From Actinomycetes bacterium (GTDB taxonomy: Bacteria; Actinomycetota; Thermoleophilia; BMS3ABIN01): a stretch of 44,248 nucleotides of DNA. A program made the translations under genes and the position numbers. The notes under the pieces were generated by a model that saw nothing but the letters and a program-made list of their open reading frames with translations, was not told the DNA's origin and searched no databases. Numbering within the stretch: the stretch's first letter is position 1; each line of letters opens with the position of its first letter. Below, piece after piece: positions 44 to 17,737 of this stretch. The stretch covers positions 1-44,248 of the forward strand of contig JAJRWQ010000105.1 of assembly GCA_024276735.1 (NCBI GenBank). The letters are read 5' to 3'.

Positions 44-280
44 CTAGCGCTTCTTGTCGTATTCCAGGTGAATCACCCGGTGCAGCCGCATCCGCGTCTC
101 ACCTGGAACCTCCTCGCTGGGCAGGGAGTGGTAGAGCGTCACCGTTTTCCGCAGCGTGTTCACCACTATCCGGCAGTTGCGGCAGCCATCGAGATGTTTC
201 TCGATCTCGCGGCAGGCGTCATCGGAGAGCTCGGCGTCGATGAAGTCGGATAGCGATTCGAAGATCTCGTTGCAGTTCAT
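44..280 (-). CDS. Short soluble zinc-finger anti-sigma factor (ZAS type)
   Basis: EKHLDGCRNC (Hx3Cx2C) motif; ATGA overlap with the upstream sigma gene; no TM segment. Confidence 0.8.
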   Translation of the reverse strand: MNCNEIFESLSDFIDAELSDDACREIEKHLDGCRNCRIVVNTLRKTVTLYHSLPSEEVPGETRMRLHRVIHLEYDKKR

Positions 281-897
281 GAAGCTGCCCCCTCGGTCTG
301 GTAGCTGTCGAAGTAGCCCGACAGCTGGTTCCGCAGGTAGAGCCTGGCCCGGTGCAGGCGTGACTTGACGGCCGCCTCGGTGAGGTCGAGCACCTCCGCC
401 GTCTCGGCGGTGGAGAGCTCTTCGACGTCCCTGAGGACGAACACGGCCCGGTAGATCTCCGGCATTCCTTCCACGGCACGGTTCATGACTTCGATGGCCT
501 CCTCGCTGAGGAGCTCGTCCACGGGGCTGTTGGACCAGTCGGCGATGAGCTCTCCCGAGCGGGCGGCCTCCTTGACGGCGTAGACTTCGTCGAGAAACTC
601 GTCCTCGTTGCGGTTGAGGCGGTTTTGCTTGCGCAGGCGCGAGAGGGCGGCGTTGGCAGCGATGCGGTACAGCCAGGTGGAAAAGCGGGACCGTCCCTGG
701 AACCGGTCGAGGGCGCGGATGACGTTGAGAAAGGTGTCCTGTAGTACATCCTCTGCATCTTCCCTGTTTCCCAGCATGCGCAACGCCAGGTTGTAGACGC
801 GGTCCTCGTACCGCGAGATAAGCTCCCCCAGGAGCTCTTTCTCGCCGGCGTTGATCCGCTCAACTAGTTGCCTGTCGCTGGGAACTCTATCACTCAT
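277..897 (-). CDS. ECF RNA polymerase sigma factor (RpoE/SigW-like)
   Basis: Region 2 (YNLALRMLGNREDAEDVLQDTFLNVIRAL...FSTWLYRIAANAALSRLRK) and region 4 (VFVLRDVEELSTAETAEVLDLTEAAVKSRLHRARLYLR). Confidence 0.93.
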   Translation of the reverse strand: MSDRVPSDRQLVERINAGEKELLGELISRYEDRVYNLALRMLGNREDAEDVLQDTFLNVIRALDRFQGRSRFSTWLYRIAANAALSRLRKQNRLNRNEDEFLDEVYAVKEAARSGELIADWSNSPVDELLSEEAIEVMNRAVEGMPEIYRAVFVLRDVEELSTAETAEVLDLTEAAVKSRLHRARLYLRNQLSGYFDSYQTEGAAS

Positions 898-3387: not shown

Positions 3388-3504
3388 CGGGGGTTGGGTG
3401 CGTGAAACTTCGTTTACTTATTGATACCCGCCGGCCCGACGTTCAACCACCGGCGGCGCATTTCTTATCGAAGGCAGCAGGATGCCGATACACATTATAG
3501 GACG

Positions 3505-3600
3505 AAAAGGCAAACCCATCGCGAGGTGGGGACGCAAAGCCAGGGGTCTTTCCGTCACGGGAAGACAGCCCGGCTGCCGAAGCTGGTTTGCTGCCATCTA
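3505..3600 (+). ncRNA. GEMM-I / cyclic-di-GMP-I class riboswitch aptamer
   Basis: GGCAAACCCAUC-GCGA-GGUGGGGACGCAAAGCCA core with GNRA-capped P1b, then GUCUUUCCG-UCA-CGGGAAGAC stem and CAGCCCGGCUGCCGAAG. Confidence 0.87.
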
Positions 3601-3620
3601 GCAGCGTTGACGTGTTGCGA

Positions 3621-3668
3621 TAAGGCTCATTTGCTCCGACGGCCGGGTGCGAGTGAGCTTTGTTTTTG
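3621..3668 (+). terminator. Candidate riboswitch-controlled intrinsic terminator
   Basis: TAAGGCTCATTTGC pairs with GCGAGTGAGCTTTG (about 14 bp with G-U pairs), followed by TTTTTG. Confidence 0.65.
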
Positions 3669-3703
3669 TCCCCTGGGAGGTACCGGGTACGGGCGAGACG
3701 GTT

Positions 3704-3730
3704 TGCTCATTGAGGCAGCGGCAATGAGCA
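3704..3730 (+). promoter_or_regulatory. Hairpin sequestering the start codon
   Basis: Perfect 8-bp stem TGCTCATT/AATGAGCA; the right arm contains the ATG (3724-3726), the loop contains GAGG. Confidence 0.6.
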
Positions 3731-4074
3731 GGCGTATCCTTCATAGGAAGTGTCTCGGGGCAGCACTGGCGTTGACGGCCGTCGTCGCCTGTACCTGGTT
3801 GGTTTTCAGCACGCCGGCGCTGGCGCTTTCGGCGGGATCCACCACCACGGTCAAGGTAATGGTGGTGCAGTCGGTGGCAATCGACGCCAGTGGTTTCGAA
3901 ACCGGTGCCCATCTCTCTCCCGGAGAACTCCAGGTCCAGGTCGAGCTCGATCCCCTGGCGGGCGCGGCACGGGACGGGGCCGTGGAAAAGCACCAGTCGC
4001 CAACAAGCGGCCTCTTTGCCTGTGACTTCACGCAACTGGGAATCAGCGTGATCAGGACCATGACCCGCCTCTAG
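3724..4074 (+). CDS. Small secreted hypothetical protein (116 aa, signal peptide)
   Basis: MSRRILHRKCLGAALALTAVVACTWLVFSTPALA signal-like N-terminus; downstream of the riboswitch; terminator after the stop. Confidence 0.7.
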   Translation: MSRRILHRKCLGAALALTAVVACTWLVFSTPALALSAGSTTTVKVMVVQSVAIDASGFETGAHLSPGELQVQVELDPLAGAARDGAVEKHQSPTSGLFACDFTQLGISVIRTMTRL

Positions 4075-4100
4075 GCGTTCGTGGCGGGTGAAGAGCGACG

Positions 4101-4140
4101 GCGGTCCCCGGCCGGGGCGGCGGGGACCGCCTTTTGTTGT
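4101..4140 (+). terminator. Intrinsic terminator
   Basis: GCGGTCCCCG/CGGGGACCGC perfect 10-bp stem then CTTTTGTT. Confidence 0.8.
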
Positions 4141-4283: not shown

Positions 4284-4712
4284 ATGGACATTCAGCGCAT
4301 GGTAGAGAGCAGGATCCGGGAGCTGGAAGAGCGCCGTGAAGCTGCGCCAGCGTCCGGCGGCGGCGGCGACGAGCCCCGCGCCGGCGAACGCCGCCTGCCT
4401 GAACGCGGCAGCGCGGACATTGAAGATTTCATTCTCAGTGCCGACGAAAAACTGGCAGAGGTGGCCGTCAGGGTGCTGGAGCTGACGGAGAGGCTCTCGG
4501 GCGACCTGGGGCGCATGGAACAGGAGCTGCTTCGTTCGCGCCTGGAAGTTCTCCAGGGCGCGGAGACGGTGATGGACCTGGCCATGATGCTCAGGCGCCG
4601 CTGCCGCGAGTTCCTGGCAGAAGGAGGCGGCGCCGCCATGGGCATCGAGGAGCCCGTTACGCCGCCCGGCGGGCGTCACCGGGGCGTCGCCGATCTCTTC
4701 CGCCGTACCTGA
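4284..4712 (+). CDS. Hypothetical coiled-coil protein (142 aa)
   Basis: AGGGAGA RBS then ATG; amphipathic heptad-like composition; immediately upstream of a GGDEF gene. Confidence 0.6.
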   Translation: MDIQRMVESRIRELEERREAAPASGGGGDEPRAGERRLPERGSADIEDFILSADEKLAEVAVRVLELTERLSGDLGRMEQELLRSRLEVLQGAETVMDLAMMLRRRCREFLAEGGGAAMGIEEPVTPPGGRHRGVADLFRRT

Positions 4713-4758: not shown

Positions 4759-5787
4759 ATGCCGGAAGAACCGAGTTTCGGCGCCCGGCAGAGGCAGCCG
4801 GCGTCGAGAGAGCAAGACCAGATGCTGGCGGCGGTGGCCGCCAAGTCGGGACGGTCCCTGCGTTCCCGCGGTGACCAGGCCGTCGAGCAGTGGCTTGAGC
4901 CGCTGATCGCGGACCTGGACCTGGAATCCCTCAAGTCCTTTCCCGCCAGCGAGCTGGCGGAGGCCTTCCCGGGCCTGGTGGACGAGCTCGCCCGGGCCAT
5001 CGAGCTTCCCGGCGACGACGCGCCCCAGGCTGAAACCATCGAGGCCGTCGCCGCGCTCATCGCCTCGCTGCGGCGGAGGTCCCCCTCGCTGGAGAAGCTC
5101 ATCGACGACCTGGCGCGGCTGAAGCAGGTGCTCCTGGACGCCGCCTCGCGGGACCTGCGCCGTACCGACCAGGCGCCCATCGCCATGGCTGGCAGGCTGG
5201 ATACGGGCTTTACCCGGCTGCTCAAGGCCGCCGTGATCACCCACGTGGAGAACAACTCGCGCCAGCTGCAGCAGCTCGCCGATACCGATCCCCTCACCGG
5301 CCTCTACAACGTGCGCTACTTTCGCCGCCAGCTGCACAAGCAGCTGGAGCTCTACAAGCGCTACCGGATCCCCTTTTCGCTGCTGATGATCGACCTGGAC
5401 AACCTCAAGGAGCTCAACGACACCTTTGGGCACGAGGTGGGCGACCGCGCCATCCGCAACCTGGCCGACATCATGAAGGCGGAAAAGCGCGAGACCGACA
5501 TCGCCGTCAGGTACGGCGGCGACGAGTTTTTCATGATCCTGCCCAGCAGCGACGCCGACGAGGCGGAGCGGCTGGCGCAGCGCATCAGCCGCCACAGCCG
5601 GGCCCTGAATTTCGCCAGCGGCGGCCGGGAGATGACCGCTGCCTCCATCGGCGTCGCCGCCTGCCCCGCCGACGGCACCGACGTGGGCTCGCTCCGGGCC
5701 CGGGCCGACCGGGCCCTGTACCTGGCCAAGACCCTGGGCGGCGGCACCGTGGCCCGCTACCGCGAGTTCGAGGTGGCCAACATGTGA
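4759..5787 (+). CDS. Diguanylate cyclase (GGDEF domain)
   Basis: DPLTGLYNVRYF...LLMIDLDNLKELNDTFGHEVGD...VRYGGDEFFMILP. Confidence 0.93.
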   Translation: MPEEPSFGARQRQPASREQDQMLAAVAAKSGRSLRSRGDQAVEQWLEPLIADLDLESLKSFPASELAEAFPGLVDELARAIELPGDDAPQAETIEAVAALIASLRRRSPSLEKLIDDLARLKQVLLDAASRDLRRTDQAPIAMAGRLDTGFTRLLKAAVITHVENNSRQLQQLADTDPLTGLYNVRYFRRQLHKQLELYKRYRIPFSLLMIDLDNLKELNDTFGHEVGDRAIRNLADIMKAEKRETDIAVRYGGDEFFMILPSSDADEAERLAQRISRHSRALNFASGGREMTAASIGVAACPADGTDVGSLRARADRALYLAKTLGGGTVARYREFEVANM

Positions 5788-15313: not shown

Positions 15314-17737
15314 TCAGGCGCCCGCTTCTGCCCGGGCCGTCAACGGCTTCTCTTCGCCGACTATGGCCACGAAGGCGTCTACCACCCGGGGATCGAACTG
15401 GGTGCCCCGGTTCCGCACCAGCTCCTCGATGGCCATCTGCGTCGACAGCGCCTTGCGGTAGGGACGGTCCGAGGTCATCGCCTCGAAGGAGTCGGCCACG
15501 GCGAGGATGCGCGCCCCCAGCGGTATCTCCTCCGCCGCCAGGCCGTCCGGGTACCCCTTGCCGTCGTAACGCTCGTGGTGGTGGCGCACCAGCGGCTGCA
15601 CCGGGAAGGGGAAGTCCACCGGCTTGAGGATGCGGTCGCTCATCACCGGGTGCTTCTTGATAATCGCGAACTCTTCCACCGTCAGCTTGCCCGGCTTGGT
15701 GAGGATGGCGTCGGGGATGCCGATCTTGCCTACGTCGTGGAGGTAGCCGGCGTAGCGGATCGTCTGCAGCTCGTCTCCCTCCAGGCCCAGGCTGCGGGCG
15801 GTGGCCTCGGCATAGAGGGAGACCTTCTCCGAGTGGCCACGGGTATACGTATCCTTGGCGTCGATGGTCTCCGCCAGGGACTTGATGGTGCCCACGAAGG
15901 CGTCCTGCAGGTTCTCGTACATCTGCGAGTTCTCGATGGCGATGGCCGCCTCGTTGGCTGCCGTCGCCAGCAGGTCCACCTCGCTCTTCTTCAGTTCGCG
16001 CGGCTCGGCGAAGTAGATGCAGATGACACCGATCGCCTGGTCCTTGGCCATCAGCGGCAGGGCGATCAGCGACGAGTATCCCTGGATACGCGCCAGCTGC
16101 CGCCAGGGCTCGTACTCCTGGCTTTGTTCCACGTCGTTCACGGCCACCGGTTTCTGTTCCAGGAAAGCGCGGCCGATGGGGCCTTTGCCCATGGGAATCC
16201 GGTTCTTGCGGTTGATGGTCCAGACATACTCGGCGGACAGGTTGTAGCTGGCGGTGATGTTCAGGTGCCGGCCCTGCTCGTCGGGAAGCAGCACCGAGGC
16301 GTACTGGGCGCCCACGAAGTTGCCCACCCGCTGGGCGACGATGCTCACCACTTCCTGGTAGTCCAGCGTAGAGGTGAACGCCTGGCTGATGCGGTGCATC
16401 ACCGACAGCTCGCGTACCTGCCACTCCGACCGCTCGTAGAGGCGGGCGTTCTCGATGGCCACCGCCGCCTGGCTCATCAGGATCTGGTAGAACTCGATCT
16501 TCTTGGTGGAGAAGGGGCTGCGCTCCCAGCGGCGCATCTCTCCCAGCGTCACCACTCCCAGCACGTCGCCCTTGGAGATAAGCGGTAACAGCAGCGCCGA
16601 TGCCGTGTCCTTGGTGAGCACCCACTCCCATTCGTCTTCCGCGATCTCGCCGTCGTCTTCCTCGCGCCGGAGGACCTGCGGCTTCCGGCTGTCGATCGCC
16701 GCCCGGTGGTACTTGGCCCTCTCCAGGGGGATCCTCCGGTCCACGCTCTCCGACCAGTGTTCCACCTTCCTGGTGGTGGACTCCGCCTTCACCACCAGGA
16801 AGTCACCGCTGTCGTCCAGCAGCGAGATACGGCAGTAGGTCACCTTCTGCGAGGCCGCTATCTTCTCGCACAGGATCTGCAGGATCCGGTCCACGTGCAG
16901 CTCCGAGGAAACGGCCACGCTGGCGCTGAGCAGCAGGCGTACCTCCTCCTCGCGGCTGCCGAGCGATACCGCCATGCGGTCGAAGGCGCGCGCCAGGTCG
17001 CCGATCTCGTCGTGGCGCCTGCTGTCGATGGTGGTGACCCGGTTCTCTTCGACGATCTTCTCGGTGGAGGCGGTGAGCTGTTTAACCGGCCTGATCAGCA
17101 GCCGGTGCAGCGAGAAGTAGAGGATTGCGATCAGCACCAACAGGCCCAGGTTGGAGATGACCGCGAACTTCACCTGCTGGGCCAGGATGGTCTCGTCCCG
17201 GCCGCTGGCGTCGAGGTAGATGCCGATCGACGCCACCGGGTTGCCGTCCCGGTCGTGGAGCGGGGCGAGCATCTCCAGCTCGTTCCCGCTCCCTTCGCCT
17301 CCCTCGCCGCTGCCGCCCTCTTCCTCTTCCTCGCCGCTTTTCTCTACGAAGCGGGTCTCGTTGCTGAAGATGGGTGCGGCGTCGTTCTCGTCCGCCGTCT
17401 CGCCCAGCGACTGGTGGTCGCTGCTGGCGATGACCTTCACTCCCTCCGGGGTGGGCGCATAGAGGGAGACCTTGAGCAGGTTGTCGTCGCGGGCGATCAA
17501 GGCGTCGATCTCCTCCTGCAGCTCTGCGGTGTTGATGGTGTCGCCGTCGCTGTGGATGAAGAGCTCGCTTTCGAAGAAGCTCGCCATCTGGCGTGCCCGC
17601 TCCACGTATTCCCGGTTGATGGTGTCGGCCAGGTTCCGCGAGGTGTAGAAATTGAGCATCACGGAGAGGCCGGCGACAGTGACCGCTATCAGGAGGGAAA
17701 GCTTGCCCCGCAAGCCTATCTTTGAAATCACGCCCAA
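15314..17737 (-). CDS. Sensor with TM, HAMP, GAF domains and C-terminal HD-GYP phosphodiesterase
   Basis: IRPVKQLTASTEKIVEENR HAMP; two GAF-like regions; YLHDVGKIGIPDAIL...HHERYDGKGYPDGL HD-GYP. Confidence 0.92.
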   Translation of the reverse strand: MGVISKIGLRGKLSLLIAVTVAGLSVMLNFYTSRNLADTINREYVERARQMASFFESELFIHSDGDTINTAELQEEIDALIARDDNLLKVSLYAPTPEGVKVIASSDHQSLGETADENDAAPIFSNETRFVEKSGEEEEEGGSGEGGEGSGNELEMLAPLHDRDGNPVASIGIYLDASGRDETILAQQVKFAVISNLGLLVLIAILYFSLHRLLIRPVKQLTASTEKIVEENRVTTIDSRRHDEIGDLARAFDRMAVSLGSREEEVRLLLSASVAVSSELHVDRILQILCEKIAASQKVTYCRISLLDDSGDFLVVKAESTTRKVEHWSESVDRRIPLERAKYHRAAIDSRKPQVLRREEDDGEIAEDEWEWVLTKDTASALLLPLISKGDVLGVVTLGEMRRWERSPFSTKKIEFYQILMSQAAVAIENARLYERSEWQVRELSVMHRISQAFTSTLDYQEVVSIVAQRVGNFVGAQYASVLLPDEQGRHLNITASYNLSAEYVWTINRKNRIPMGKGPIGRAFLEQKPVAVNDVEQSQEYEPWRQLARIQGYSSLIALPLMAKDQAIGVICIYFAEPRELKKSEVDLLATAANEAAIAIENSQMYENLQDAFVGTIKSLAETIDAKDTYTRGHSEKVSLYAEATARSLGLEGDELQTIRYAGYLHDVGKIGIPDAILTKPGKLTVEEFAIIKKHPVMSDRILKPVDFPFPVQPLVRHHHERYDGKGYPDGLAAEEIPLGARILAVADSFEAMTSDRPYRKALSTQMAIEELVRNRGTQFDPRVVDAFVAIVGEEKPLTARAEAGA

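What the first reader, a model, noticed from the sequence alone, without database searches (positions are those of the whole stretch)
3505..3730. c-di-GMP-class riboswitch with both a terminator and a start-codon hairpin downstream
Seen: a GEMM-I core (GGCAAACC...GNRA...GGGACGCAAAGCCA...) is followed by a ~14-bp hairpin plus TTTTTG (3621-3668) and then a perfect 8-bp hairpin enclosing the ATG (3704-3730). The conserved GCAAACC (3510-3516) is also perfectly complementary to GGTTTGC (3585-3591), a plausible ligand-free alternative. Established: GEMM-I aptamers bind c-di-GMP, and a subclass binds cGAMP. Inference: one ligand may gate both transcription and translation. GGDEF/HD-GYP genes in the same window supply a plausible signal source.
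Basis: partly seen in the sequence, partly recalled or inferred. Interest (0 to 1): 0.75.

Follow-up and report, generated by a model that had tools for sequence, protein, structure and literature searches.

The report
c-di-GMP riboswitch guarding a start codon
The window carries a genuine cyclic-di-GMP-sensing RNA switch, shared by about a dozen related uncultured bacteria, in which a rival fold of the sensor is wired to a hairpin that hides the start codon of a small secreted protein; it is a new layout of a known kind of switch.

Summary
Window 3500-3582 is a GEMM-I aptamer (Rfam E 2e-14). A terminator-like hairpin and a hairpin enclosing the ATG follow at the stated places. Twelve orthologous leaders from relatives (class Thermoleophilia, Actinomycetota) keep all three parts. 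The start-codon hairpin covaries between 5' UTR and codon 2 (14 double-change cells; 0/500 shuffles), so it is a selected RNA structure. A second copy at 3700-3707, inside the 5' arm of the start hairpin, is; with segments beyond the terminator it forms an anti-aptamer in 13/13 leaders. Pilin-gene paralogs carry the same anti-core element in their terminator arm. Best reading: a c-di-GMP OFF switch acting mainly on translation; whether the terminator responds to ligand is not shown. The pocket (G20/A47/C92) is canonical c-di-GMP-I, and all 76 distinct relatives have A47, so neither cGAMP nor the 'GGC' variant fits. New: these leaders start just downstream of WhiG/sigma28-type promoters, and the genome encodes WhiG and the c-di-GMP-armed anti-sigma RsiG, so one messenger may act at promoter and leader. 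New variant of a known kind.

The parts
3484..3491 (+). WhiG/sigma28-type -10 element GCCGATAC (consensus GCCGATAA); the -35 is weak (TTAT 3465-3468, spacer 15)
   Evidence: CGAT[A/T] at -23 to -27 from GGCAAACC in all 13 group-A leaders; published WhiG consensus in PMC8325347
3500..3582 (+). c-di-GMP class I (GEMM-I) aptamer; pocket G20=G3509, A47=A3536, C92=C3577
   Evidence: numbering by the Rfam structure line
3621..3668 (+). Terminator-like hairpin with U-rich tail (TTTGTTTTTG)
   Evidence: hairpin -24.4 kcal/mol; present in 13/13 orthologous leaders, most with 6-7 T
3667..3673 (+). Anti-aptamer segment 1 (UGUCCCC), complementary to aptamer 3528-3534
3693..3707 (+). Anti-aptamer segment 2 (GCGA 3693-3696; GGUUUGCU 3700-3707), complementary to aptamer UCGC 3519-3522 and GGCAAACC 3509-3516
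   Evidence: UUUG invariant in 13/13
3701..3733 (+). Start-codon hairpin: 5' arm 3701-3712, loop 3713-3721, 3' arm 3722-3733 holding the AUG; SD-like GAGG 3712-3715 at the edge of the loop
   Evidence: compensatory changes between the 5' UTR arm and codon 2
3724..4074 (+). Regulated gene: 116-aa secreted protein (signal peptide), no Pfam match, unknown function
4100..4135 (+). Terminator after the small gene, so the riboswitch transcript probably ends here
   Evidence: sequence
4284..4712 (+). Syntenic gene of unknown function ('MDIQ' protein)
   Evidence: next to the leader in 12/13 loci
4759..5787 (+). GGDEF diguanylate cyclase, conserved neighbour
   Evidence: same order in 11/13 loci

Best explanation
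The leader is a c-di-GMP-I riboswitch that turns its gene off when c-di-GMP is bound, mainly at translation initiation. Transcription starts a few bases before the aptamer from a WhiG/sigma28-type promoter. Some transcripts stop at the terminator. In those that read through, two folds compete. Without ligand, the 5' half of the aptamer (GGCAAACC...UCGC...GGUGGGGACG) pairs with segments lying between terminator and start codon, including GGUUUGC; this takes the foot of the 5' arm away from the start-codon hairpin and loosens it. With c-di-GMP bound, the aptamer keeps GGCAAACC, GGUUUGC returns to the hairpin and the AUG is buried. Shown by sequence and conservation: aptamer, terminator, covarying start hairpin, complementary anti-aptamer in all 13 leaders. 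Inferred: ligand identity, direction (OFF), and that the two folds exchange in cells. Not shown: that the terminator responds to ligand.
For: Aptamer E 2e-14. Thirteen orthologous leaders, tied by synteny to the same small secreted gene, an MDIQ gene and a GGDEF gene. Start hairpin: 90.9% of cells paired against 35-55% when slid, 14 double-change cells, covariation 0.334 against 0.211 +/- 0.024, 0/500 shuffles; 20000 permutations never reach the observed pairing. RNAalifold on 12 leaders chooses the anti-aptamer as consensus fold. Duplex -29 to -43 kcal/mol in 13/13, matched by 1-32 of 1000 shuffles each; in every leader it is stronger with its own aptamer arm than with the average arm of groups B, C or D. 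Group A aptamer arms vary at 2 of 36 positions against 6 of 36 in paralog group B. Fourteen pilin-gene leaders carry the same anti-core element (GUGGUUUGCC, altered slightly in three) inside the terminator 5' arm: the same design applied to a terminator. Pocket bases G20, A47, C92 as in c-di-GMP binders.
Against: No experiment. In the window itself the anti-aptamer is the weakest of the set by energy (27/1000 shuffles do as well) and its forced fold lies 9.6 kcal/mol above the aptamer fold; across members the difference runs from -8.0 to +9.6. With the anti-aptamer forced, the inner 6 bp of the start hairpin can still form in many leaders, so opening is partial and the predicted gain in AUG accessibility is modest; in L116 it has the opposite sign and in L044 and L056 it is nil. 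The aptamer side hardly varies, so the anti-aptamer has almost no covariation of its own. The 13 sequences are related and the counts are not independent events.
Confidence: 0.62

Rival explanations
1. The aptamer controls only the terminator, and the start-codon hairpin is a separate constant or temperature-sensitive translation brake.
For: Terminator conserved in 13/13. In L080, L044, L089, L040 and L041 it is predicted more likely with the aptamer formed than with P2 blocked. The hairpin's inner 6 bp survive in the anti-aptamer state of many leaders.
Against: In the window, L047, L052 and L116 the terminator folds with probability at least 0.9 in either state. No conserved antiterminator was found, and the U-tract is eroded in L038 and L078 while the start hairpin stays. 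Conserved GGUUUG inside the hairpin arm is unexplained by this view.
Confidence: 0.2
2. The ligand couples both terminator and start codon (true dual gate).
For: Both hairpins conserved; termination would be coherent with translational OFF. A c-di-GMP-I riboswitch with terminators plus start-codon trapping has been described (Bc1, PMC11218506).
Confidence: 0.3
3. The RNA senses something other than c-di-GMP (cGAMP, or the ligand of the c-di-GMP-I-GGC variants if that differs).
For: Rfam's best E-value is to RF03167 c-di-GMP-I-GGC; P1 is very short.
Against: Base 47 is A, whereas the RF03167 consensus has G there; 76/76 distinct class members have A47. Base 20 is G, whereas cGAMP binders have A (G20A). 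RF01051 gives more bits (72.2 against 69.1), although its E-value is worse.
Confidence: 0.12
4. The GGUUUG/GGCAAACC complementarity is coincidental, and the leader is an ordinary attenuator with a chance start hairpin.
For: Individual shuffle probabilities in the window and L052 are only about 0.03.
Against: Same register in 13/13, most at 1-5 per 1000; covarying start hairpin; recurrence of the element in the pilin paralogs' terminator.
Confidence: 0.08

Closest known systems
c-di-GMP-I riboswitch (GEMM-I, Rfam RF01051), e.g. Vibrio cholerae Vc2
   Same: Aptamer core, tetraloop hairpin P2, P3, pocket bases G20/A47/C92
   Different: Very short P1; switching sequence pairs with the P2 arm and lies about 150-200 nt downstream, beyond a terminator
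Bc1 riboswitch of Bacillus thuringiensis (PMC11218506)
   Same: c-di-GMP-I aptamer, long (about 220 nt) expression platform with terminators and ligand-linked trapping of the start codon
   Different: Bc1 has two terminators, and its start codon is trapped with the poly(U)/poly(A) pairing; here one terminator plus a dedicated covarying start-codon hairpin and an anti-aptamer. Bc1's two effects are opposed; here they would be coherent
c-di-GMP-I-GGC (Rfam RF03167)
   Same: Passes its gathering score (69.1 against 59 bits), similar P1 and junction
   Different: The base at Vc2 position 47 is A, not the G of the family consensus
RsiG-(c-di-GMP)-WhiG sigma/anti-sigma switch (PMC8325347)
   Same: Same class of bacteria has single-motif RsiG and WhiG; promoter consensus TAAA / GCCGATAA matches these leaders
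   Different: That work reports control of promoters only; the word riboswitch does not occur in it

Membership tests
c-di-GMP-I (RF01051) | Covariance-model score above gathering score | tested here: met
   72.2 bits against 35
c-di-GMP-I (RF01051) | Pocket bases G20, A47, C92 | tested here: met
   G3509, A3536, C3577 by the Rfam structure line; Vc2 residues as named in PMC11218506
c-di-GMP-I (RF01051) | GNRA tetraloop on P2 | tested here: met
   GCGA loop 3521-3524
c-di-GMP-I (RF01051) | Binds c-di-GMP | not testable with these tools
   Needs ITC or in-line probing
c-di-GMP-I-GGC (RF03167) | Covariance-model score above gathering score | tested here: met
   69.1 bits against 59
c-di-GMP-I-GGC (RF03167) | G at position 47 (my reading of the name as G20-G47-C92, supported by the model consensus GCGAAgCc) | tested here: not met
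   A47 in the window and in 76/76 distinct class members
cGAMP riboswitch (GEMM-Ib) | A at the position of Vc2 G20 | tested here: not met
   G3509; G20A is the cGAMP-type base
Transcription-terminating riboswitch platform | Ligand-dependent terminator/antiterminator pair | tested here: inconclusive
   Terminator conserved; no conserved antiterminator
Translational riboswitch platform | Start-site hairpin and aptamer-linked fold that exclude each other | tested here: met
   Shared bases 3700-3707, conserved in 13/13. Conservation only; the exchange itself is untested
WhiG regulon | -10 GCCGATAA-like element, with WhiG and RsiG in the genome | tested here: met
   transcription start not mapped, -35 of the window weak

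The most novel reading that the evidence does not exclude
One second messenger controls the same gene at up to three successive stages: promoter use through RsiG-(c-di-GMP)-WhiG, possibly termination, and start-codon exposure through the riboswitch. Pairing of WhiG-type promoters with c-di-GMP riboswitches would then be a general wiring rule of class Thermoleophilia.
Probability: 0.35. Interest if true: 0.75.

Novelty: new variant of a known kind. Interest (0 to 1): 0.6.

Why it matters
It would be a clear case in which the anti-aptamer strand is built into the hairpin that hides the start codon, on the far side of a terminator, with paralogs in the same genomes using the same strand in a terminator instead. 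That shows how one aptamer is refitted to different expression platforms. The WhiG promoter link joins two c-di-GMP outputs that the literature found here treats separately, and makes layered control by one messenger directly testable.

Tried and rejected
GGTTTGC 3585-3591 as the switching partner: only in the window, rejected. cGAMP and GGC readings: pocket bases do not fit. Conserved antiterminator for the group-A terminator: forced and free folding of transcripts ending at the U-tract gave no shared element. The start hairpin aligned automatically was misplaced in four rows, so arms were anchored on the AUG and TTTG instead, with the loop replaced by a fixed linker. Structure prediction of the small protein: mean pLDDT 53, only the signal-peptide helix is confident; uninformative. 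Viral contigs: no match to the aptamer pattern. The consensus terminator scan did not flag the 3621-3668 hairpin, probably because of its bulge, so that terminator rests on folding and conservation.

Full report
What is there. The aptamer at 3500-3582 is a c-di-GMP class I riboswitch aptamer by covariance model: RF03167 69.1 bits, E 2e-14; RF01051 72.2 bits. It is followed by a hairpin with a U-rich tail ending at 3668 and a hairpin that encloses the ATG at 3724-3726. The ATG opens a 116-residue protein with a signal peptide and no Pfam match. A terminator follows the gene at about 4100-4135, so the switch probably controls this one gene.

Where it comes from. The genome held is a 1.61-Mb assembly in 120 contigs, 89.6% complete, with four such aptamers: the window, a type IV pilin gene, and two other secreted-protein genes. 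Of 80 genomes searched among relatives 48 have matches.

Orthologs. Twelve leaders from relatives are true counterparts (group A): same aptamer sequence, terminator, start hairpin, a small secreted protein with conserved ends, then an MDIQ protein (12/13 loci, window included) and a GGDEF diguanylate cyclase (11/13). The exceptions are L116, where neither neighbour was seen, and L052, whose fetched stretch ends before the GGDEF gene would be reached.

Start-codon hairpin. With arms anchored on the AUG and on the invariant TTTG, 90.9% of 143 cells pair, against 35-55% when slid; 14 cells show changes on both sides and the covariation score exceeds all 500 shuffles. The key case is codon 2: AGC, GGC or GAC, matched by GCU, GCC or GUC in the 5' UTR (one G-U exception, L080). 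Two closely similar leaders (L040, L041) already differ by such a double change. The hairpin is therefore a selected RNA structure, not a by-product of coding.

The switching strand. The copy at 3700-3706 is the conserved one. RNAalifold on 12 leaders prefers a fold in which the 5' half of the aptamer pairs with sequence beyond the terminator. In the window the main pairs are 3509-3516/3700-3707, 3519-3522/3693-3696 and 3528-3534/3667-3673. Each of the 13 leaders forms this duplex at -29 to -43 kcal/mol; 1-5 of 1000 shuffles do as well in eleven leaders, 27 in the window and 32 in L052. Each duplex is stronger with its own aptamer arm than with the average arm of the other groups. Because GGUUUG is also the foot of the start hairpin, the two folds exclude each other there. 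Forced folds differ by -8.0 to +9.6 kcal/mol, a range compatible with a switch, but in the window the aptamer fold is favoured by 9.6, and in many leaders the inner 6 bp of the start hairpin survive in the anti-aptamer state. Direction and size of effect are therefore inference.

An internal comparison. Fourteen pilin-gene leaders in the same family (group C) carry GTGGTTTGCC, the complement of their own GGCAAACCAC, inside the 5' arm of an intrinsic terminator; three have extra bases in it. In group A the same anti-core element sits in the 5' arm of the start hairpin. In both, binding of ligand by the aptamer would free the element to build the repressing hairpin: OFF in both.

The terminator. 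It is conserved in 13/13, with an eroded U-tract in L038 and L078. Folding transcripts that end at the U-tract gives a higher terminator probability with the aptamer formed in L080, L044, L089, L040 and L041, no effect in the window, L047, L052 and L116, and small or mixed effects in the rest. No conserved antiterminator was found. Dual gating is possible, not shown.

Ligand. The pocket bases are G20, A47 and C92, as listed for Vc2 in PMC11218506. cGAMP riboswitches have A at the position of G20 (PMC6274999). The RF03167 consensus has G at position 47, whereas all 76 distinct class members examined have A. The best-fitting Rfam name therefore misleads; c-di-GMP is the expected ligand. The genome has 11 GGDEF domains, two in the window, and the window has an HD-GYP motif at 15580 on the minus strand.

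Promoter. Group A and B leaders have CGATA-type -10 elements 23-42 nt before GGCAAACC, often with TAAA or TCAA about 15-16 nt further upstream. Counting CGAT[A/T], 25 of 46 family loci against 4.2 expected, and 16 of 30 other loci against 2.1 expected by single-base shuffling, have it. This is the WhiG/flagellar consensus TAAA / GCCGATAA (PMC8325347). The genome encodes a FliA/WhiG sigma (287 bits) and a single-motif RsiG (PF22802, 67.5 bits against 27); RsiG is in 18 of 19 genomes searched, the own genome included. In Rubrobacter, c-di-GMP arms RsiG to hold WhiG, which drives type IV pilus genes (PMC8325347). So c-di-GMP may act on these genes both at the promoter and in the leader. A search for papers joining riboswitch, c-di-GMP and Thermoleophilia found none in the library held.

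Prior art. A c-di-GMP-I riboswitch with terminators and start-codon trapping is known (Bc1, PMC11218506). What is new here is the layout, its conservation, and the WhiG promoter link.

Verdict. New variant of a known kind; interest 0.6.

Noticed in passing
L007 and 13 other pilin-gene leaders (group C): The complement of the aptamer core (GTGGTTTGCC) lies inside the 5' arm of a strong terminator in front of type IV pilin genes: a clean predicted c-di-GMP OFF attenuator.
   Followed up: partly
G000:C64:15100-15693: A sigma-70-family ORF ends about 170 nt upstream of the pilin-gene riboswitch (C64:15866); its upstream motif GTCTAGGAAAA...GGGTAGTATAGGGG is conserved and differs from the WhiG type.
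   Followed up: no
L006 and 10 other group B leaders, plus L103: A conserved CTGGGC before the terminator is complementary to GCCCAG in the aptamer's 3' part (11 bp perfect in L006), and in several it can instead form a local GGGC/GCCC hairpin.
   Followed up: no
G000:C65:20408-20623: Single-motif RsiG homolog (PF22802), the c-di-GMP-armed anti-sigma factor of WhiG.
   Followed up: yes
Class Thermoleophilia aptamers, 76 distinct: Rfam RF03167 (c-di-GMP-I-GGC) claims many of them although all have A at position 47, where its consensus has G; family assignment by score misleads about the pocket.
   Followed up: yes
L119:2373-2502 (minus strand): Two near-identical c-di-GMP aptamers in tandem before one gene in a Solirubrobacterales record.
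   Followed up: no
window 3667-3669 and L044/L040 counterparts: The anti-aptamer begins inside the terminator's U-tract, so the two elements overlap by a few bases.
   Followed up: partly
window 280-897 (minus strand): ECF-type sigma factor gene (Sigma70_r2 and r4_2) about 2.6 kb upstream of the riboswitch.
   Followed up: no
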